This document shows, piece after piece, positions 21,572-51,034 of a stretch of 64,000 nucleotides of DNA (within the stretch, counting starts at the first letter, position 1; each line of letters starts with the position of its first letter). A program made the position numbers and the translations under genes. Under the pieces are notes generated by a model. That model saw nothing but the letters and a program-made list of their open reading frames with translations, made no database searches and was not told the origin of the DNA. The stretch comes from Psychrobacillus glaciei (GTDB lineage Bacteria; Bacillota; Bacilli; Bacillales_A; Planococcaceae), in NCBI RefSeq assembly GCF_008973485.1, contig NZ_CP031223.1, positions 3,744,001 to 3,808,000 on the forward strand, in the 5' to 3' direction.

Positions 21572-22765
21572 GTGACTTGTATGGAAAACAAAAAAGGCTT
21601 TGCCGATCGTTTTGATTGGACACTAGCTTTTATAATATTATTATTTTTAATTATAAGCTTATTAGCGATTTCATCTGCAGTTACAACTGGTCAATATGCC
21701 GCATATAATTTTGTAGGTAAACAAATTTTTTGGTATGTGGTGGGAACGGTCATTATCGGTTGTGTTATGTTTTTTGAACCGGAGCAATATAAAAAAATGT
21801 CCTGGTATATTTACGGTCTCGGGGTGCTCCTTCTATTAATTCTTTTTATCTTACCTGATAGCATGGCTCTTGTGGCGCGTAAACATGAAGCGAAAAGTTG
21901 GTTCCACTTACCTTTCGGGGATATTCAGCCAGCAGAGTTTATGAAGACATTTTACATTTTGGGACTTGCTCGTTTAATTACAAATCATCATGAAAAATAT
22001 TTGATGAAGAACTTAAAAACGGATGTCATATTACTCGGAAAAATCGTTTTAACCATGCTTCTACCGTTAGCATTTATCCTGAAGCAGCCCGACCTCGGTA
22101 CGGCTCTTGTATTTTTCGCCATTACAGCTGCTTTAGTTATAGTTGCAGGAATTACTTGGAGAATTATCTTGCCGCTACTTTTAGGCGGAGCGGGTATTGG
22201 TGCCCTACTTTTATGGATGGCTATCTATATGCAAGATTTTTTAGAAGCTAAGTTTGGTCTACAATTATATCAATTTGCCCGAATTTATTCATGGTTAGAT
22301 CCATATGCCTACGCATCGAATGAAGGGATGCACTTAATAACTTCTTTAAACGCCATTGGTTCTGGAGAGATTTTCGGGAAGGGATATGGTGGCCGAGTAG
22401 TGTATGTCCCTGAAAATCATACTGACTTTATTTTTGCCGTTATAGGCGAAGAATACGGGTTTGTAGGTGCAAGTATAGTCATCAGTCTTTTCTTTTTTCT
22501 TATTTTTCATTTAACGAAAATTACACTTCAATTAAAAGATTCATATAGTACGTACGTATGTGCCGGAATTATTGCGATGATTACCTTTCATGTATTTGAG
22601 AATATTGGCATGACAATTCAATTACTACCAATTACAGGGATTCCGTTACCATTTATCAGTTATGGCGGGAGTTCTCTAATGGGGAATCTGCTTGCGATTG
22701 GTTTAGTGTTTAGTATGAAGTATCATCATAAAACGTATATGTTCGCAAAAAATGAAGACGACTGA
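21572..22765 (+). CDS. rodA: RodA/FtsW-type SEDS peptidoglycan polymerase
   Basis: A SEDS-family membrane protein of 397 residues with about ten transmembrane helices. The signature AKSWFHLPFGDIQPAEFMK, the catalytic-loop region EGMHLITSLNAIGSGEIFGKGYGG, NHTDFIFAVIGEEYGF and the closing PFISYGGSSLMGN are present. The AKSW..L and ten-helix layout favour RodA (elongasome) over FtsW or SpoVE. GTG 21572 (AAGGA, 7 nt) and ATG 21581 (AGGTG, 6 nt) are both possible starts; the latter gives 394 residues, near B. subtilis RodA. A dispersed hairpin element follows at once. Confidence 0.9.
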   Translation: MTCMENKKGFADRFDWTLAFIILLFLIISLLAISSAVTTGQYAAYNFVGKQIFWYVVGTVIIGCVMFFEPEQYKKMSWYIYGLGVLLLLILFILPDSMALVARKHEAKSWFHLPFGDIQPAEFMKTFYILGLARLITNHHEKYLMKNLKTDVILLGKIVLTMLLPLAFILKQPDLGTALVFFAITAALVIVAGITWRIILPLLLGGAGIGALLLWMAIYMQDFLEAKFGLQLYQFARIYSWLDPYAYASNEGMHLITSLNAIGSGEIFGKGYGGRVVYVPENHTDFIFAVIGEEYGFVGASIVISLFFFLIFHLTKITLQLKDSYSTYVCAGIIAMITFHVFENIGMTIQLLPITGIPLPFISYGGSSLMGNLLAIGLVFSMKYHHKTYMFAKNEDD

Positions 22766-22773
22766 GAGAACTG

Positions 22774-23120
22774 CAAGCGTCCATAAGCGCATCTGGTCTT
22801 TACTAATTTCAGAGTGCTTTAGACTAAACATTGTCTACACCATTAACGAAGAATTTTATAGAGGATCTGGAAGTGACTGAGTCACTTCCAGATCCTCTTT
22901 TTTCGGTAATCTTGTGGCGGATGTTTGTACGTCGCCCTCTTGAAATAGGCAGAGACATGGTGCATTAGGTTTGGTTAATGAATGATTAGATGCTTTCCTA
23001 TTCTTTTAAAAGCGGACGAAGAGTCAATTTCGTCCGCTCAGCACTTCTTTATCAATGAATTCTATTTATTCTTTTCAGGTTCCACCAACTATAATCATCT
23101 ACCCGCTGATTCATGTACAC
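22774..23120 (+). repeat. Dispersed hairpin element, copy A
   Basis: About 300-350 bp shared with 45663-46007 and 50440-50738. Segments common to all: GTCTTTACTA, AGAGTGCTT, GAAGTGACTG-GTCACTTC, TTTTTTCGGTAATCTTGTGGC, GCCCTCTTG, and AAAAGCGGACGAAG with its complement TTTCGTCCGCT. Left and right arms pair along most of about 200 bp. In this copy the centre is a 17-bp perfect stem (GAGGATCTGGAAGTGAC) plus six T, placed 96 bp past rodA, so it can end rodA transcription. Confidence 0.9.
22861..22902 (+). terminator. Central hairpin of element A, probable rodA terminator
   Basis: GAGGATCTGGAAGTGAC, loop TGA, and the perfect complement followed by TTTTTT. By form it is a strong intrinsic terminator; it is also the apex of the repeat element. 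Confidence 0.8.
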
Positions 23121-23249
23121 TGTGGGCAGTTTGAGTAAAAAACAATCAAGTATCAAATTCTTGCAAAATTAGAGGTACAACTTAACTATCCAGAGTTCAT
23201 CTACAGCTTACTTAGCAGCCAATTTCGTGTAAATTTTTTTAGAAAAGCT

Positions 23250-23366
23250 CAAGCATTCTTTAAACGTATACTGTCTTTACTATTTCTCGAGCACGTTGGA
23301 CGAAACATAATCTACACTATTACCGTTAGAATTATAAATCGCGAAGTGATTTGGTCAATTCACGAT
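23250..23366 (+). repeat. Dispersed hairpin element, partial copy D
   Basis: Left half of the same element: CAAGC..TCTTTAAA, CTGTCTTTACTATTT, GTTGGACGAAACAT, CTACACTATTACCGTT and a decayed centre (CGCGAAGTGATT...AATTCACGATGC). The right arm and the second hairpin are missing. It lies 130 bp downstream of copy A in the same orientation. Confidence 0.75.
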
Positions 23367-43526: not shown

Positions 43527-43958
43527 ACGTATCTTCCTTTCATAACTACTTCATTTATTTTACTACATCCGCCTTACCATAACAAATACATACATACTAG
43601 CTTACTTAATTTTAGAAGAAGAAGATATTTTTAATAAACATTAAGTAAACAAATAGTTTTTTTTTATTATTTTCTGAAAATACTTGTTAGATTTGTAAAG
43701 TATCTTTATACTTGATTAGGTACAAATGCACAATTTCTTCATTATTAATACTAAACACTAATAACCATTTAAAGTTTTAGATATTAATTTGGACAAATTA
43801 GATTAGATGATTTACTCCATTCAACTTAGACCTTACATAATAGAATATATTCAGAAGAACATCCTTAATAATCGAAATGAGATGATATAACATCACAAAA
43901 AAGAGCGTGGGATTTAATAATAGATAAGAAAAATAATGAGAGTATAGAGGTGTTTTTA
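43527..43958. other. Gene-free spacer between mntR and chemoreceptor
   Basis: About 430 bp, very AT-rich. A small inverted repeat AAGTAT-CTTT-ATACTT occurs at about 43697. No sigma-D motif (TAAA-N15-GCCGATAA) was found in front of the chemoreceptor gene, and no coding frame with a ribosome-binding site. Confidence 0.5.
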
Positions 43959-45650
43959 GTGAAATGGACAATCAGTAAGAAACTATTAAGTGGATTTATT
44001 GCTGTGTTATTAATTTTAACAATAATAGTTGGCATTAATTTTATCCAACTTACAAACGTAGATAATTCGTATCGAGATTTATTAGAAGACAAAGCAATGA
44101 AAGCTGTAAAAATAAAAGAACTACAAATAGCTGCGAAACAAGAAATGATAGCCATGCGGGGATATTTAGTAGTAGGGGATGAAAAAGCCTTTCAAGATTA
44201 TTCTGACGCAGTTTCTGATTATAAGAAAAGTTATGAGTCACTACTACCAAAGTTTAAAAAACCGGAAGCAATTAAAATGTTAGAGGATATAAACCAGGTA
44301 GAGAATGATTATACGAAATTCTCCGAAAAGGTATTTCAACTAAAAAAACAAAATAAGACTAGTGAATACGTAAACCTTATCTCCACAGAGGGAAGAGATA
44401 TAGTGAAAAGGCTTGATGAAAAAGTGACTATACTTTCCGATTTTCAAAGTAATTTATTAGCAGACGGAAGTTCAGAGAATACGTCATTCGTTCAAAAAAC
44501 GAAAACATTGGCTTTAATCTTAGGTGTCATTGCAGTATTAGCAGGAGTACTCATCGCTCTTTTCATGGGACGTGTTATTTCCAAACCAATTATAGCATTA
44601 GCAAATTCAGCAAAGAAATTAGCCGAAGGAGACCTTTCTGTTAATGAAGTAATAGTAAAAAACAAAGACGAAATTGGCGAGTTAGTTCATTCCTTTAATG
44701 ATATGGCGAAAAACCTTCGAATGGTAATTGAACAAGTTAGCCTAAACTCTGTTCATGTGGCATCCTCTGCGGAAGAATTAACTGCGAGTGCCGAACAAAC
44801 AACACAGGCGACTAATCAGATCGCAACATCTATTCAAGATATTGCAAGTGGTGCTGAGACACAAGTACTAGGTGCAAATGAATGCTCCACTGCCATGCAA
44901 GAAATGACAATCGGAATTCAGCAAGTAGCAGAAACGTCTTCTAGCGTTTCAGAATCAGCAATTGAAACTAGCAAAGAAGCTCACCTTGGCAATGAATTGC
45001 TACAAAAAGTAATACGACAAATGAACACCATCAATCTATCTGTTGAAGACTCCGCTTCTGTTATTAGAAAGTTAGGGGGATTATCACAGGAAATCGGAAA
45101 TATTATTGGAGTAATTACTGGAATAGCAGATCAAACAAACTTATTGGCATTAAATGCAGCAATTGAGGCTGCCCGTGCCGGCGAACATGGTAAAGGGTTT
45201 GCTGTTGTAGCAGATGAAGTGCGAAAGCTTGCAGAACAGTCGAAGGAATCTGCTGATCAAATAGCTGACTTGATCAATCAAATACAAGTTGACACTGGTC
45301 GAGCAGTAAATGTAATGGAAGTTGGAACTAAAGAAGTGGCATCTGGTATGACGGTCGTTCAGGAGGCTGGAGCCGGTTTTGAAAAAATATTAACATCGAT
45401 AGAACAAGTAACTTCCCAAATTCAAGAAGTATCCGCTATTTCTGAGGAGATGTCAGCAAGTGCGGAAGAAGTAAATGCTTCTCTTGAAGAAATGGCTAGT
45501 ATTGCTCAACTTTCTGCGTCCAACACGCAAAATGTGGCTTCCGCTTCTGAAGAACAGCTTGCTTCCATGGAGGAAATCTCCACATCCGCCTCTTCTTTAT
45601 CTACCATGGCGGAAGACTTGCAAACATTAGTGAAACAATTTAAATTATAA
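43959..45650 (+). CDS. Methyl-accepting chemotaxis protein
   Basis: A 563-residue chemoreceptor: transmembrane helix 1 (about 8-28), a four-helix-bundle ligand domain (about 30-180), transmembrane helix 2 (about 183-203), HAMP (about 205-258) and a signalling domain whose hairpin tip is [20 protein letters not shown]. It reports to CheA/CheW. The start is GTG 43959 ([11 protein letters not shown]) six bases after GAGGTG; an upstream GTG overlaps the site. Ligand unknown. A dispersed hairpin element follows 12 bp past the stop. Confidence 0.93.
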
Positions 45651-45662
45651 CTAAGAAAAATC

Positions 45663-46007
45663 CAAGCGTCCTTTAAGTGCATCTTGTCTTTACTATTTCC
45701 AGAGTGCTTTGGACGAAACATTGGCTACGCTATTACCGTTGGAATTTTTGTGGATCGTGAAGTGACTGCGTCACTTCTCGATCCATTTTTTCGGTAATCT
45801 TGTGGCAAATGTTTGTCTGTTGCCCTCTTGGAATTTGAAAGGACATAGTGCATTTGGTTTTGATAATGAGAGATAAGATGCTGTCCTATTCTTTTAAAAG
45901 CGGACGAAGATGCAATTTCGTCCGCTCAGCACTTCATTATCAATGGATACTATCTATTTTTTCTAGTACTACCTACTCTAATCATGCACCCACCGATTCA
46001 TGTATAC
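45663..46007 (+). repeat. Dispersed hairpin element, copy B
   Basis: Second full copy, with the same order of conserved blocks as copy A. Central stem GGATCGTGAAGTGAC / GTCACTTCTCGATCC with loop TGC, then ATTTTTT. Outer pairs readable by eye: ATTACCG/CGGTAAT, AAACAT/ATGTTT, CCAGAGTGC/GCCCTCTTGG, AAGTGCATC/AGTGCATTT. The second hairpin is AGCGGACGAA/TTCGTCCGCT at 45899-45926. Confidence 0.9.
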
Positions 46008-50422: not shown

Positions 50423-50439
50423 TGAACATAGGAAAAACG

Positions 50440-50738
50440 CAAAAGTCCTTTCAGTGCATTTTGTCTTTACTATTTTCAGAGTGCTTTAGACAAAGCATCA
50501 GCTACATTATTACCGTTGGAATTTTTGTGGTTCGTGAAGTGACTGCGTCACTTCACGATACATTTTTTCGGTAATCTTGTGGCGTATGTTTGTCCGTTGC
50601 CCTCTTGAAATAGGTAGTGACATGTTGCATTAGGTTTGGTTAATGAGAGATTAGATACTTTCCTATTATTTTAAAAGCGGACGAAGATACAATTTCGTCC
50701 GCTCAGCGTTTCTTTATCAATAAATGATATCTATTTTT
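50440..50738 (+). repeat. Dispersed hairpin element, copy C
   Basis: Third full copy. Central stem TCGTGAAGTGAC / GTCACTTCACGA, loop TGC; then CATTTTTTCGGTAATCTTG. Second hairpin AGCGGACGAA / TTCGTCCGCT at 50676-50704. Unlike A and B it does not follow a plus-strand gene, lying between two minus-strand genes. Confidence 0.9.
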
Positions 50739-50823
50739 TTCTCTGTTTCCGCTTACCTTGATAAGTAAAAGAAAGTACACCAATTTATTAATTGGACGAA
50801 GTATATTCTTCCCTGATTTAGGC

Positions 50824-50946
50824 TATTGATCGGAGCGGAAGGCGGCGACTCCAGCGAGAAAAGCGCGTCCAGGTGAGACCCCACAGCGAAGCGAGGAGGC
50901 TCACGGACTGCCCGCGGAAAGGGTCTGCCTGCAGCGGAAATCAACT
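50824..50946 (+). repeat. GC-rich dispersed repeat, copy 3
   Basis: GGCGGCGACTCCAGCG, GTGAGACCCCACAGCGAAGC, GAGGAGGCTCACGGAC, CCCGCGGAAAG, GCCTGCAGCGGAAATC. This is the best-preserved copy in the window; GTGAGACC / GGCTCAC can pair. Closely similar repeats occur between genes in many Bacillales (recalled). It adjoins element C. Confidence 0.8.
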
Positions 50947-51034
50947 TGTTCATAGCATAAAAGTTATATATATACTTTCTTATTCTTGCACAAAAGCGAC
51001 CATTTCTATATTAAGCAGTCGCTCATTTTGAAAT

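What the first reader, a model, noticed from the sequence alone, without database searches (positions are those of the whole stretch)
22774..23120. Family of about 300-bp intergenic elements that fold as one long hairpin (copies A, B, C)
Three full copies (22774, 45663, 50440) occur in 64 kb, all in the same orientation and none coding. Blocks near the left end pair in nested order with blocks of the right half (AAGTGCATC with AGTGCATTT; CCAGAGTGC with GCCCTCTTGG; AAACAT with ATGTTT; ATTACCG with CGGTAAT) around a perfect central hairpin; a second separate hairpin AGCGGACGAA/TTCGTCCGCT ends each copy. This is more structured than a simple spacer repeat. It may be a MITE-like mobile element or a repeated structured RNA; I know no named family that fits.
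Basis: partly seen in the sequence, partly recalled or inferred. Interest (0 to 1): 0.75.

Follow-up and report, generated by a model that had tools for sequence, protein, structure and literature searches.

The report
Fork-oriented hairpin mobile element in Psychrobacillus
The three repeats are copies of a non-coding mobile DNA element, present in more than eighty places in this bacterium's chromosome, and nearly every copy points the same way relative to DNA replication, which suggests that it inserts at the moving replication fork and makes that idea testable.

Summary
Three ~290-nt copies fold as one long hairpin plus a second hairpin, but the unit is larger: near-identical duplicates share 720-868 nt with fixed ends, TAAGAAAA...TTTCTTAT. 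This genome (genus Psychrobacillus) has 87 left-end matches; 17 of 19 genus genomes, this one included, have matches.

It is mobile: the one site tested, ispH/Nif3, is empty in 11 of 18 sister genomes.

The main result is polarity. All 39 right-end and 83 of 87 left-end matches follow the replichore; a dif-like site lies inside the flip interval. Four other genomes agree in 113 of 118 copies. Flanking genes do not explain it. Control repeats show less: 5:3 and 39 of 71, though the second leans the same way in two genomes.

I read it as a non-autonomous element inserted through single-stranded lagging-strand template beside terminator hairpins. Mobility and polarity are shown; mechanism and enzyme are inferred. 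Covariation is significant, but wobble pairs favour neither strand consistently, which weakens the RNA reading. No Rfam family covers the core.

The parts
22764..23045 (+). Copy A, core module (long hairpin plus second hairpin); its tail is similar to other tails to at least ~23166
23241..23333 (+). Partial fourth copy (left arm) downstream of copy A; by eye the likeness goes on to about 23385
   Evidence: family D3
45652..45951 (+). Copy B, core module; begins 1 nt after the stop codon of the 566-aa ORF 43950-45650; tail similar to other tails for about 80 nt more, no clear right end
50429..50983 (+). Copy C with its complete tail, from TAGGAAAAACGC to TATATACTTTCTTAT (555 nt)
45750..45785 (+). 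Central variable hairpin of copy B (GTGGATCGTGAAGTGAC..GTCACTTCTCGATCCA); 9 of 17 pairs change on both sides among the 41 aligned G000 copies
45899..45926 (+). Second hairpin of copy B, AGCGGACGAA..TTCGTCCGCT; its complement has a short T tract after the stem (terminator-like by eye)
50969..50983 (+). Right-end motif TATATACTTTCTTAT of copy C

Best explanation
The repeats are copies of a non-coding, non-autonomous mobile element (modular; complete units of about 460 to 870 nt, plus shorter pieces) found almost only in Psychrobacillus. Its left end is TAAGAAAA plus a small subterminal hairpin; its right end is TATATACTTTCTTAT, followed in the copies examined by the next copy's left end or by an A tract and, mostly, a terminator-like hairpin. 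SHOWN: it was dispersed recently, its ends are conserved across the genus, and its orientation follows the direction of replication and not the neighbouring genes. That strand lies on the lagging-strand template, where the flanking terminator folds as a hairpin with a T tract; the element is joined directly after that T tract and itself ends in hairpin plus T tract, so it carries a new landing site. This would explain head-to-tail chains, lack of target duplication and polarity. The enzyme is unknown; a single-strand (HUH-type or similar) transposase acting in trans is my first guess.
For: Polarity: 39 of 39 right-end and 83 of 87 left-end matches; 154 of 160 listed copies in five genomes with dnaA located. 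The right ends flip between 2,077,941 (-) and 2,217,180 (+); a dif-like site (2 mismatches) is at 2,078,260 and GC skew is negative over the 140 kb beyond it (not measured before it). The youngest duplicates already obey (L003, L004, L009, L011, L023, L024, L027, L070). Left neighbours are + in 22 and - in 20 of 42 copies, so gene direction does not set orientation (ORFs called by a simple script). Controls: a GGCC-ended MITE 5:3 (8 copies); Bacillaceae-1 away from elements 39 of 71 in G008, G012 and G015 together. Mobility: 720-nt copies at 99.3% and 868-nt copies at 99.0% identity with unrelated flanks; empty ispH site in 11 of 18 other genomes. No TSD in 23 copies. Of 23 right ends, 11 run into another element-like left end; of the other 12, 9 run into a hairpin of -7 kcal/mol or better (no shuffled control). 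Ends conserved between species, with different subterminal hairpin sequences.
Against: No enzyme is linked to the element. Departures exist: 4 of 87 left ends, 6 of 160 copies, and a truncated copy at the ispH locus of G014 that also runs against the rule. Only one site was tested for emptiness. The exact ends are blurred by A/T tracts, so a very short duplication cannot be excluded. In G000 and G014 Bacillaceae-1 copies not near a listed element also lean co-directional (19 of 28 and 19 of 21), so some polarity may come from gene placement or from elements not listed. Transposition itself was not observed.
Confidence: 0.6

Rival explanations
1. The orientation is kept by selection: the element is a host-used polar chromosome site (fork pausing, segregation, or stopping of head-on transcription), and wrong-way copies are lost.
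For: Polarity is near perfect across five genomes and flips in the dif-containing interval.
Against: The ispH site is empty in 11 of 18 sister genomes. Left ends are spread over ori-to-ter fifths as 21, 8, 21, 21, 16, with no enrichment towards the terminus. The youngest copies already obey. G010 had no match, and G011 none and two.
Confidence: 0.15
2. The element is moved by the resident RAYT-like Y1 transposase (PF01797), like REP/REPIN elements.
For: A Y1 match is present in 9 of 9 genomes tested, one to three per genome, with an HUH-like motif by eye. Y1 enzymes use lagging-strand single strands (PMC6006769 and PMC5371812, passages read). In the three element-rich species G001, G012 and G014 the Y1 gene shows no hairpin of that other kind upstream, and its sequence there looks like a branch of its own (by eye).
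Against: The gene is equally present in G010 and G011, which have almost no elements. In 5 of the 8 loci looked at, a different hairpin with GGTGCC/GGCAC core lies upstream, which looks like its own REP. Blast found no element copy beside the G000 gene; only short tail-like matches about 2 kb from one G015 gene.
Confidence: 0.2
3. The complement strand is an RNA inserted at forks by a group II intron reverse transcriptase, as group IIC introns insert behind terminators.
For: The genome holds group II introns; 11 of 12 RT genes counted (17 of all 18 RVT_1 matches, nested ones included) run co-directionally with the fork, the same polarity as the element's complement. A terminator stem-loop upstream of the target is typical of group IIC introns (PMC7923331, passages read).
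Against: No group II domain was reported in ten element-bearing loci by Rfam at E up to 1 or 0.05. Element-rich G012 and G014 have a single RVT_1 match each. Fold and wobble counts do not favour an RNA of the complement strand.
Confidence: 0.12
4. A repeated structured RNA gene or 3'-UTR element, transcribed and used by the cell.
For: Very stable fold and significant covariation. Of the 22 copies with a plus-strand left neighbour, 14 start within -3 to +15 nt of its stop codon. G-T exceeds A-C in G000 itself (178/99).
Against: Orientation ignores the flanking genes. G-T to A-C counts do not favour the same strand in the other two groups (29/38, 29/28). The one site tested is not shared by most species. 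No Rfam match at gathering score for the core; the only weak one is DUF805b at 23.4 of 35.6 bits over the second hairpin of L002. Transcription was not testable here.
Confidence: 0.08

Closest known systems
IS200/IS605 single-strand insertion sequences and their non-autonomous derivatives
   Same: No target duplication found, hairpin near an end, lagging-strand polarity (behaviour of the family: PMC5371812, passages read).
   Different: No transposase is encoded, the core is a ~180-nt imperfect hairpin, polarity is nearly absolute, and the landing site seems to be the A/T side of a terminator, not a fixed tetranucleotide that I could detect.
REP/BIME/REPIN elements with RAYT transposases
   Same: Intergenic, hairpin-rich, high copy number, no own gene, a Y1 gene in the genome.
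   Different: Roughly ten times longer than a REP, modular, directional; in 5 of 8 loci the Y1 gene has another hairpin beside it.
bcr1-bcr18 of the Bacillus cereus group, BOX/RUP of pneumococcus, ERIC (recalled; named in passages and reference lists)
   Same: Dispersed intergenic imperfect palindromes, some with mobile features.
   Different: Different sequence as far as I recall; not compared here. I know of no report of replication polarity for them. For another such repeat, Bordetella BRE, the authors state that it is not co-oriented with the fork (PMC3110155, passage read).
Group IIC introns
   Same: Insertion behind terminator hairpins, fork-dependent polarity.
   Different: No ribozyme domains found in the element and no reverse transcriptase in it.
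Bacillaceae-1 RNA (RF01690)
   Same: Lies inside the tail of some copies, on the complement strand in the four G000 loci shown.
   Different: Absent from the core and from many copies; found alone elsewhere in the genus and family, near random orientation in three genomes.

Membership tests
Classical MITE (DDE transposase derived) | Terminal inverted repeats | tested here: inconclusive
   Only 7-8 bp (ATAAGAAA / TTTCTTAT) match between the ends
Classical MITE (DDE transposase derived) | Constant-length target-site duplication | tested here: not met
   23 copies, k 2-10, offsets -4..+6 and -4..+13: best excess 3.2 matches at k=2
Classical MITE (DDE transposase derived) | Autonomous partner with the same ends | not tested
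   No search for transposase genes between element ends was made; only Y1 and RVT_1 families were searched
IS200/IS605 derivative | No target-site duplication | tested here: met
   A/T tracts blur 1-2 nt
IS200/IS605 derivative | Lagging-strand orientation bias | tested here: met
   39 of 39 right ends, 83 of 87 left ends
IS200/IS605 derivative | Subterminal hairpins at both ends | tested here: inconclusive
   Left-end hairpin seen by eye with different sequence between species; right-end hairpin short and only seen by eye
IS200/IS605 derivative | TnpA of the family in the genome, acting on these ends | not testable with these tools
   Only RAYT-like Y1 genes found; activity needs the bench
REP/RAYT (REPtron) | RAYT gene flanked by the same repeat | tested here: not met
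   Blast of five element sequences against 12 RAYT loci: only short tail-like matches in one locus about 2 kb away; other hairpin upstream in 5 of 8 loci
Group II intron | Domain V / D1-D4 in the element | tested here: not met
   Rfam cmscan on ten element-bearing loci, E up to 1 (five loci) and 0.05 (eight loci): none; true introns elsewhere in the genome are found by the same scan
Known Rfam structured RNA | Core reaches a family's gathering score | tested here: not met
   (window)

The most novel reading that the evidence does not exclude
A new kind of fork-coupled, single-strand mobile DNA that uses the host's own transcription terminators as landing hairpins and rebuilds a landing hairpin at its own end, so that it can chain head to tail, moved by an enzyme not yet recognised as a transposase.
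Probability: 0.25. Interest if true: 0.85.

Novelty: new variant of a known kind. Interest (0 to 1): 0.66.

Why it matters
Long non-coding repeats of Firmicutes are mostly unexplained. Here one family gives a sharp, countable signature: orientation by replication direction, independent of genes, in five species, with less oriented repeats in the same genomes as controls. That makes fork-coupled insertion of a non-autonomous element directly testable. If confirmed, such repeats would also mark origin, terminus and inversions in draft genomes.

Tried and rejected
Structured RNA as the main reading: fold and covariation are strong, but wobble counts show no consistent strand and copies ignore gene direction. 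An alifold run on 49 diverse copies gave only a weak consensus, probably because the alignment of the arms slips; I used per-group alignments instead.

Terminus-directed signal (KOPS-like): rejected, no ori-to-ter gradient. Gene-strand bias as the cause of polarity: rejected at a 75% leading-strand null (the 75% is my assumption; p = 1.3e-5 for right ends, 4.3e-7 for left ends; chained copies are not independent).

RAYT as driver: kept as a rival, not favoured. On checking, the upstream hairpin of another kind is in 5 of 8 loci, not in G001, G012 and G014; I raised this rival from 0.17 to 0.2 for that. Reverse transcriptase as driver: kept as a rival. Plasmid or phage origin: no match in either collection. 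A copy outside the genus: the pattern scan gave 12 stretches, 10 Psychrobacillus, one Cytobacillus citreus and one Cedecea. I had left the last two out of the alignment set before checking; one search then showed that the Cytobacillus one has a real match (E 1.8e-52; 87-89% to G015 copies) and the Cedecea one none. The family-wide search scored only 3 candidates per genome and its listing is cut, so it cannot exclude more copies outside the genus.

Rows dropped before counts: 15 short opposite-strand hits that overlap a listed copy (its other hairpin arm), second halves of split copies, rows on contigs other than C1, genomes in many contigs, and rows not transcribed from the cut listings (for example G012 3941361, which obeys). 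At most 40 first-look candidates per genome were scored. In one search, 12 of 18 RVT_1 matches of G000 were counted; the six left out are nested or split ones on the same strand as their neighbours. In one search one mis-hit (L075b) was dropped. The Bacillaceae-1 control uses only the printed rows. The MITE control has only 8 copies, at least two of them inside element tails.

Papers: search listings only; passages only for PMC2864571, PMC6006769, PMC5371812, PMC4666352, PMC3110155, PMC7923331. I saw no report of this element in those searches; one relevant paper (Gomez 2014, on orientation of transposable elements and the sliding clamp) is not held, only its title was seen in a reference list.

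Full report
Observation. RNA folding gives z of -8.1, -9.1 and -8.5 for A, B and C with 0 of 200 shuffles as stable. Internal repeat search adds a fourth partial copy after copy A. Rfam at gathering scores finds only four tRNAs in the window.

Extent. Searching the window's own genome (G000, 4.35 Mb in 2 contigs) with copy B gives 41 near-full copies at 82-100% identity, with only 40 of 211 first-look candidates scored. Pairs of recent duplicates show the true unit: L004/L009 share 720 nt at 99.3%, L024/L070 868 nt at 99.0%, starting at TAAGAAAA and ending about CATATACTTTCTTATCTTTT, with unrelated flanks. The shortest complete unit seen is about 465 nt (L010); copy C of the window is 555 nt. 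Tails vary: some hold a GC-rich repeat, some Bacillaceae-1, some a GGCC-ended MITE. A left-end pattern (28 nt, up to 3 mismatches) finds 87 places and a right-end pattern (18 nt, up to 1 mismatch) 39; the same patterns read backwards find none.

Distribution. With copy B as query 17 of 19 genus genomes, G000 included, have matches; G010 and G011 have none, but G011 has two with a G014 copy as query. The ends are conserved between species whose cores are only about 70% identical, and the left subterminal hairpin keeps its form with other letters. One copy lies in a Cytobacillus citreus contig, by transfer or contamination. Outside the genus the listed family-wide matches fall in the Bacillaceae-1 part only, with 3 candidates scored per genome. 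No plasmid or phage match.

Polarity. [quoted passage not shown] half-genome split; G014 is in 5 contigs). In G000 all 39 right ends and 83 of 87 left ends obey; chained copies are not independent. The last minus right end is at 2,077,941, a dif-like 28-mer (2 mismatches) at 2,078,260, and the first plus right end at 2,217,180. GC skew is negative over the 140 kb beyond; it was not measured before. Flanking genes do not explain this: the left neighbour is plus in 22 and minus in 20 of 42 copies, the right neighbour minus in 30, plus in 10, not found in 2. A GGCC-ended MITE in the same genome is 5:3. Bacillaceae-1 copies away from elements are 39 of 71 in three genomes, but 19 of 28 in G000 and 19 of 21 in G014; the last two figures weaken the control and may include unlisted elements.

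Mobility and site. At ispH/Nif3 the joined flanks of G000 match as one piece in 11 of 18 other genomes; there the convergent genes share a terminator, and in G000 about 465 nt sit between the ispH stop and that terminator's A tract. Of the other seven, G001 and G014 carry their own element in this spacer in the opposite direction to ispH (the G014 one breaks the fork rule), G008 another repeat, G010, G011 and G016 a different short spacer, and G017 has the two flanks about 50 kb apart. This is the only site tested. No target duplication is seen in 23 copies. Of 23 right ends, a loose script flags 11 as followed by another element-like left end; of the other 12, 9 are followed by a hairpin of -7 kcal/mol or better, mostly behind an A tract; no shuffled control was run. 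On the complement strand this reads terminator hairpin, T tract, element, and the element's own end is again hairpin and T tract.

Structure. On 41 copies, 81 pairs: 92.8% of cells pair, 70 cells change on both sides against 25.5 +/- 4.4 in shuffles, and 9 of 17 pairs of the central hairpin change on both sides. I take this as a constraint on folded DNA, or as hairpin-templated repair, more than on RNA; this is inference.

Enzyme. A Y1 (PF01797) gene is in 9 of 9 genomes, also in G010 and G011 with almost no elements. Another hairpin lies upstream of it in 5 of 8 loci, but not in element-rich G001, G012 and G014. Group II introns are present and 11 of 12 RT genes counted in G000 have the polarity of the element's complement, as expected of fork-dependent elements, but no group II domain was found in the element. 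The driver is unknown.

Judgement. Shown: a dispersed mobile family with fixed ends and near-absolute replication polarity. Inferred: insertion through the lagging-strand template beside terminator hairpins. Known relatives behave so in part (IS200/IS605, group IIC introns), but the element fails their membership tests or cannot be tested. I therefore call it a new variant of a known kind.

Noticed in passing
window 23241-23333: Truncated fourth copy behind copy A; fits the head-to-tail chaining seen elsewhere.
   Followed up: partly
G000:C1:2078260 (locus L171): dif-like 28-mer with 2 mismatches, 319 bp from the last minus-strand right end; GC skew negative beyond it.
   Followed up: partly
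G012:C1 4008608-4009040, 3419537-3419980, 1695564-1695928: Three copies split by 101-102 nt at the hairpin apex (query 171/173); two of the three are among G012's three orientation exceptions.
   Followed up: no
L127 (G000:C1:994500-1002200) and orthologues: RAYT-like Y1 gene with a long hairpin upstream (GGTGCC/GGCAC core) in 5 of 8 loci, absent in G012, G014 and G001; the same hairpin type also lies in the tail region of L071.
   Followed up: partly
L178, L179, L180 (G000): Group II introns apparently nested in one another (two RT genes, two D1-D4 and two domain V matches in each locus), several nearly identical copies.
   Followed up: partly
   Followed up: partly
G015:C1:2317778-2365538: Cluster of about ten element matches within 48 kb.
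   Followed up: no
window 50820-50930: GC-rich repeat (GGAGCGGAAGGCGGCGACTCC...) in the tail of copy C; a similar repeat lies without the element at the ispH site of G008.
   Followed up: no
L118 (Cytobacillus citreus FJAT-49705, NZ_JAGYPM010000009.1): One element copy outside the genus, 87-89% identical to its best G015 matches and truncated in its second hairpin.
   Followed up: partly
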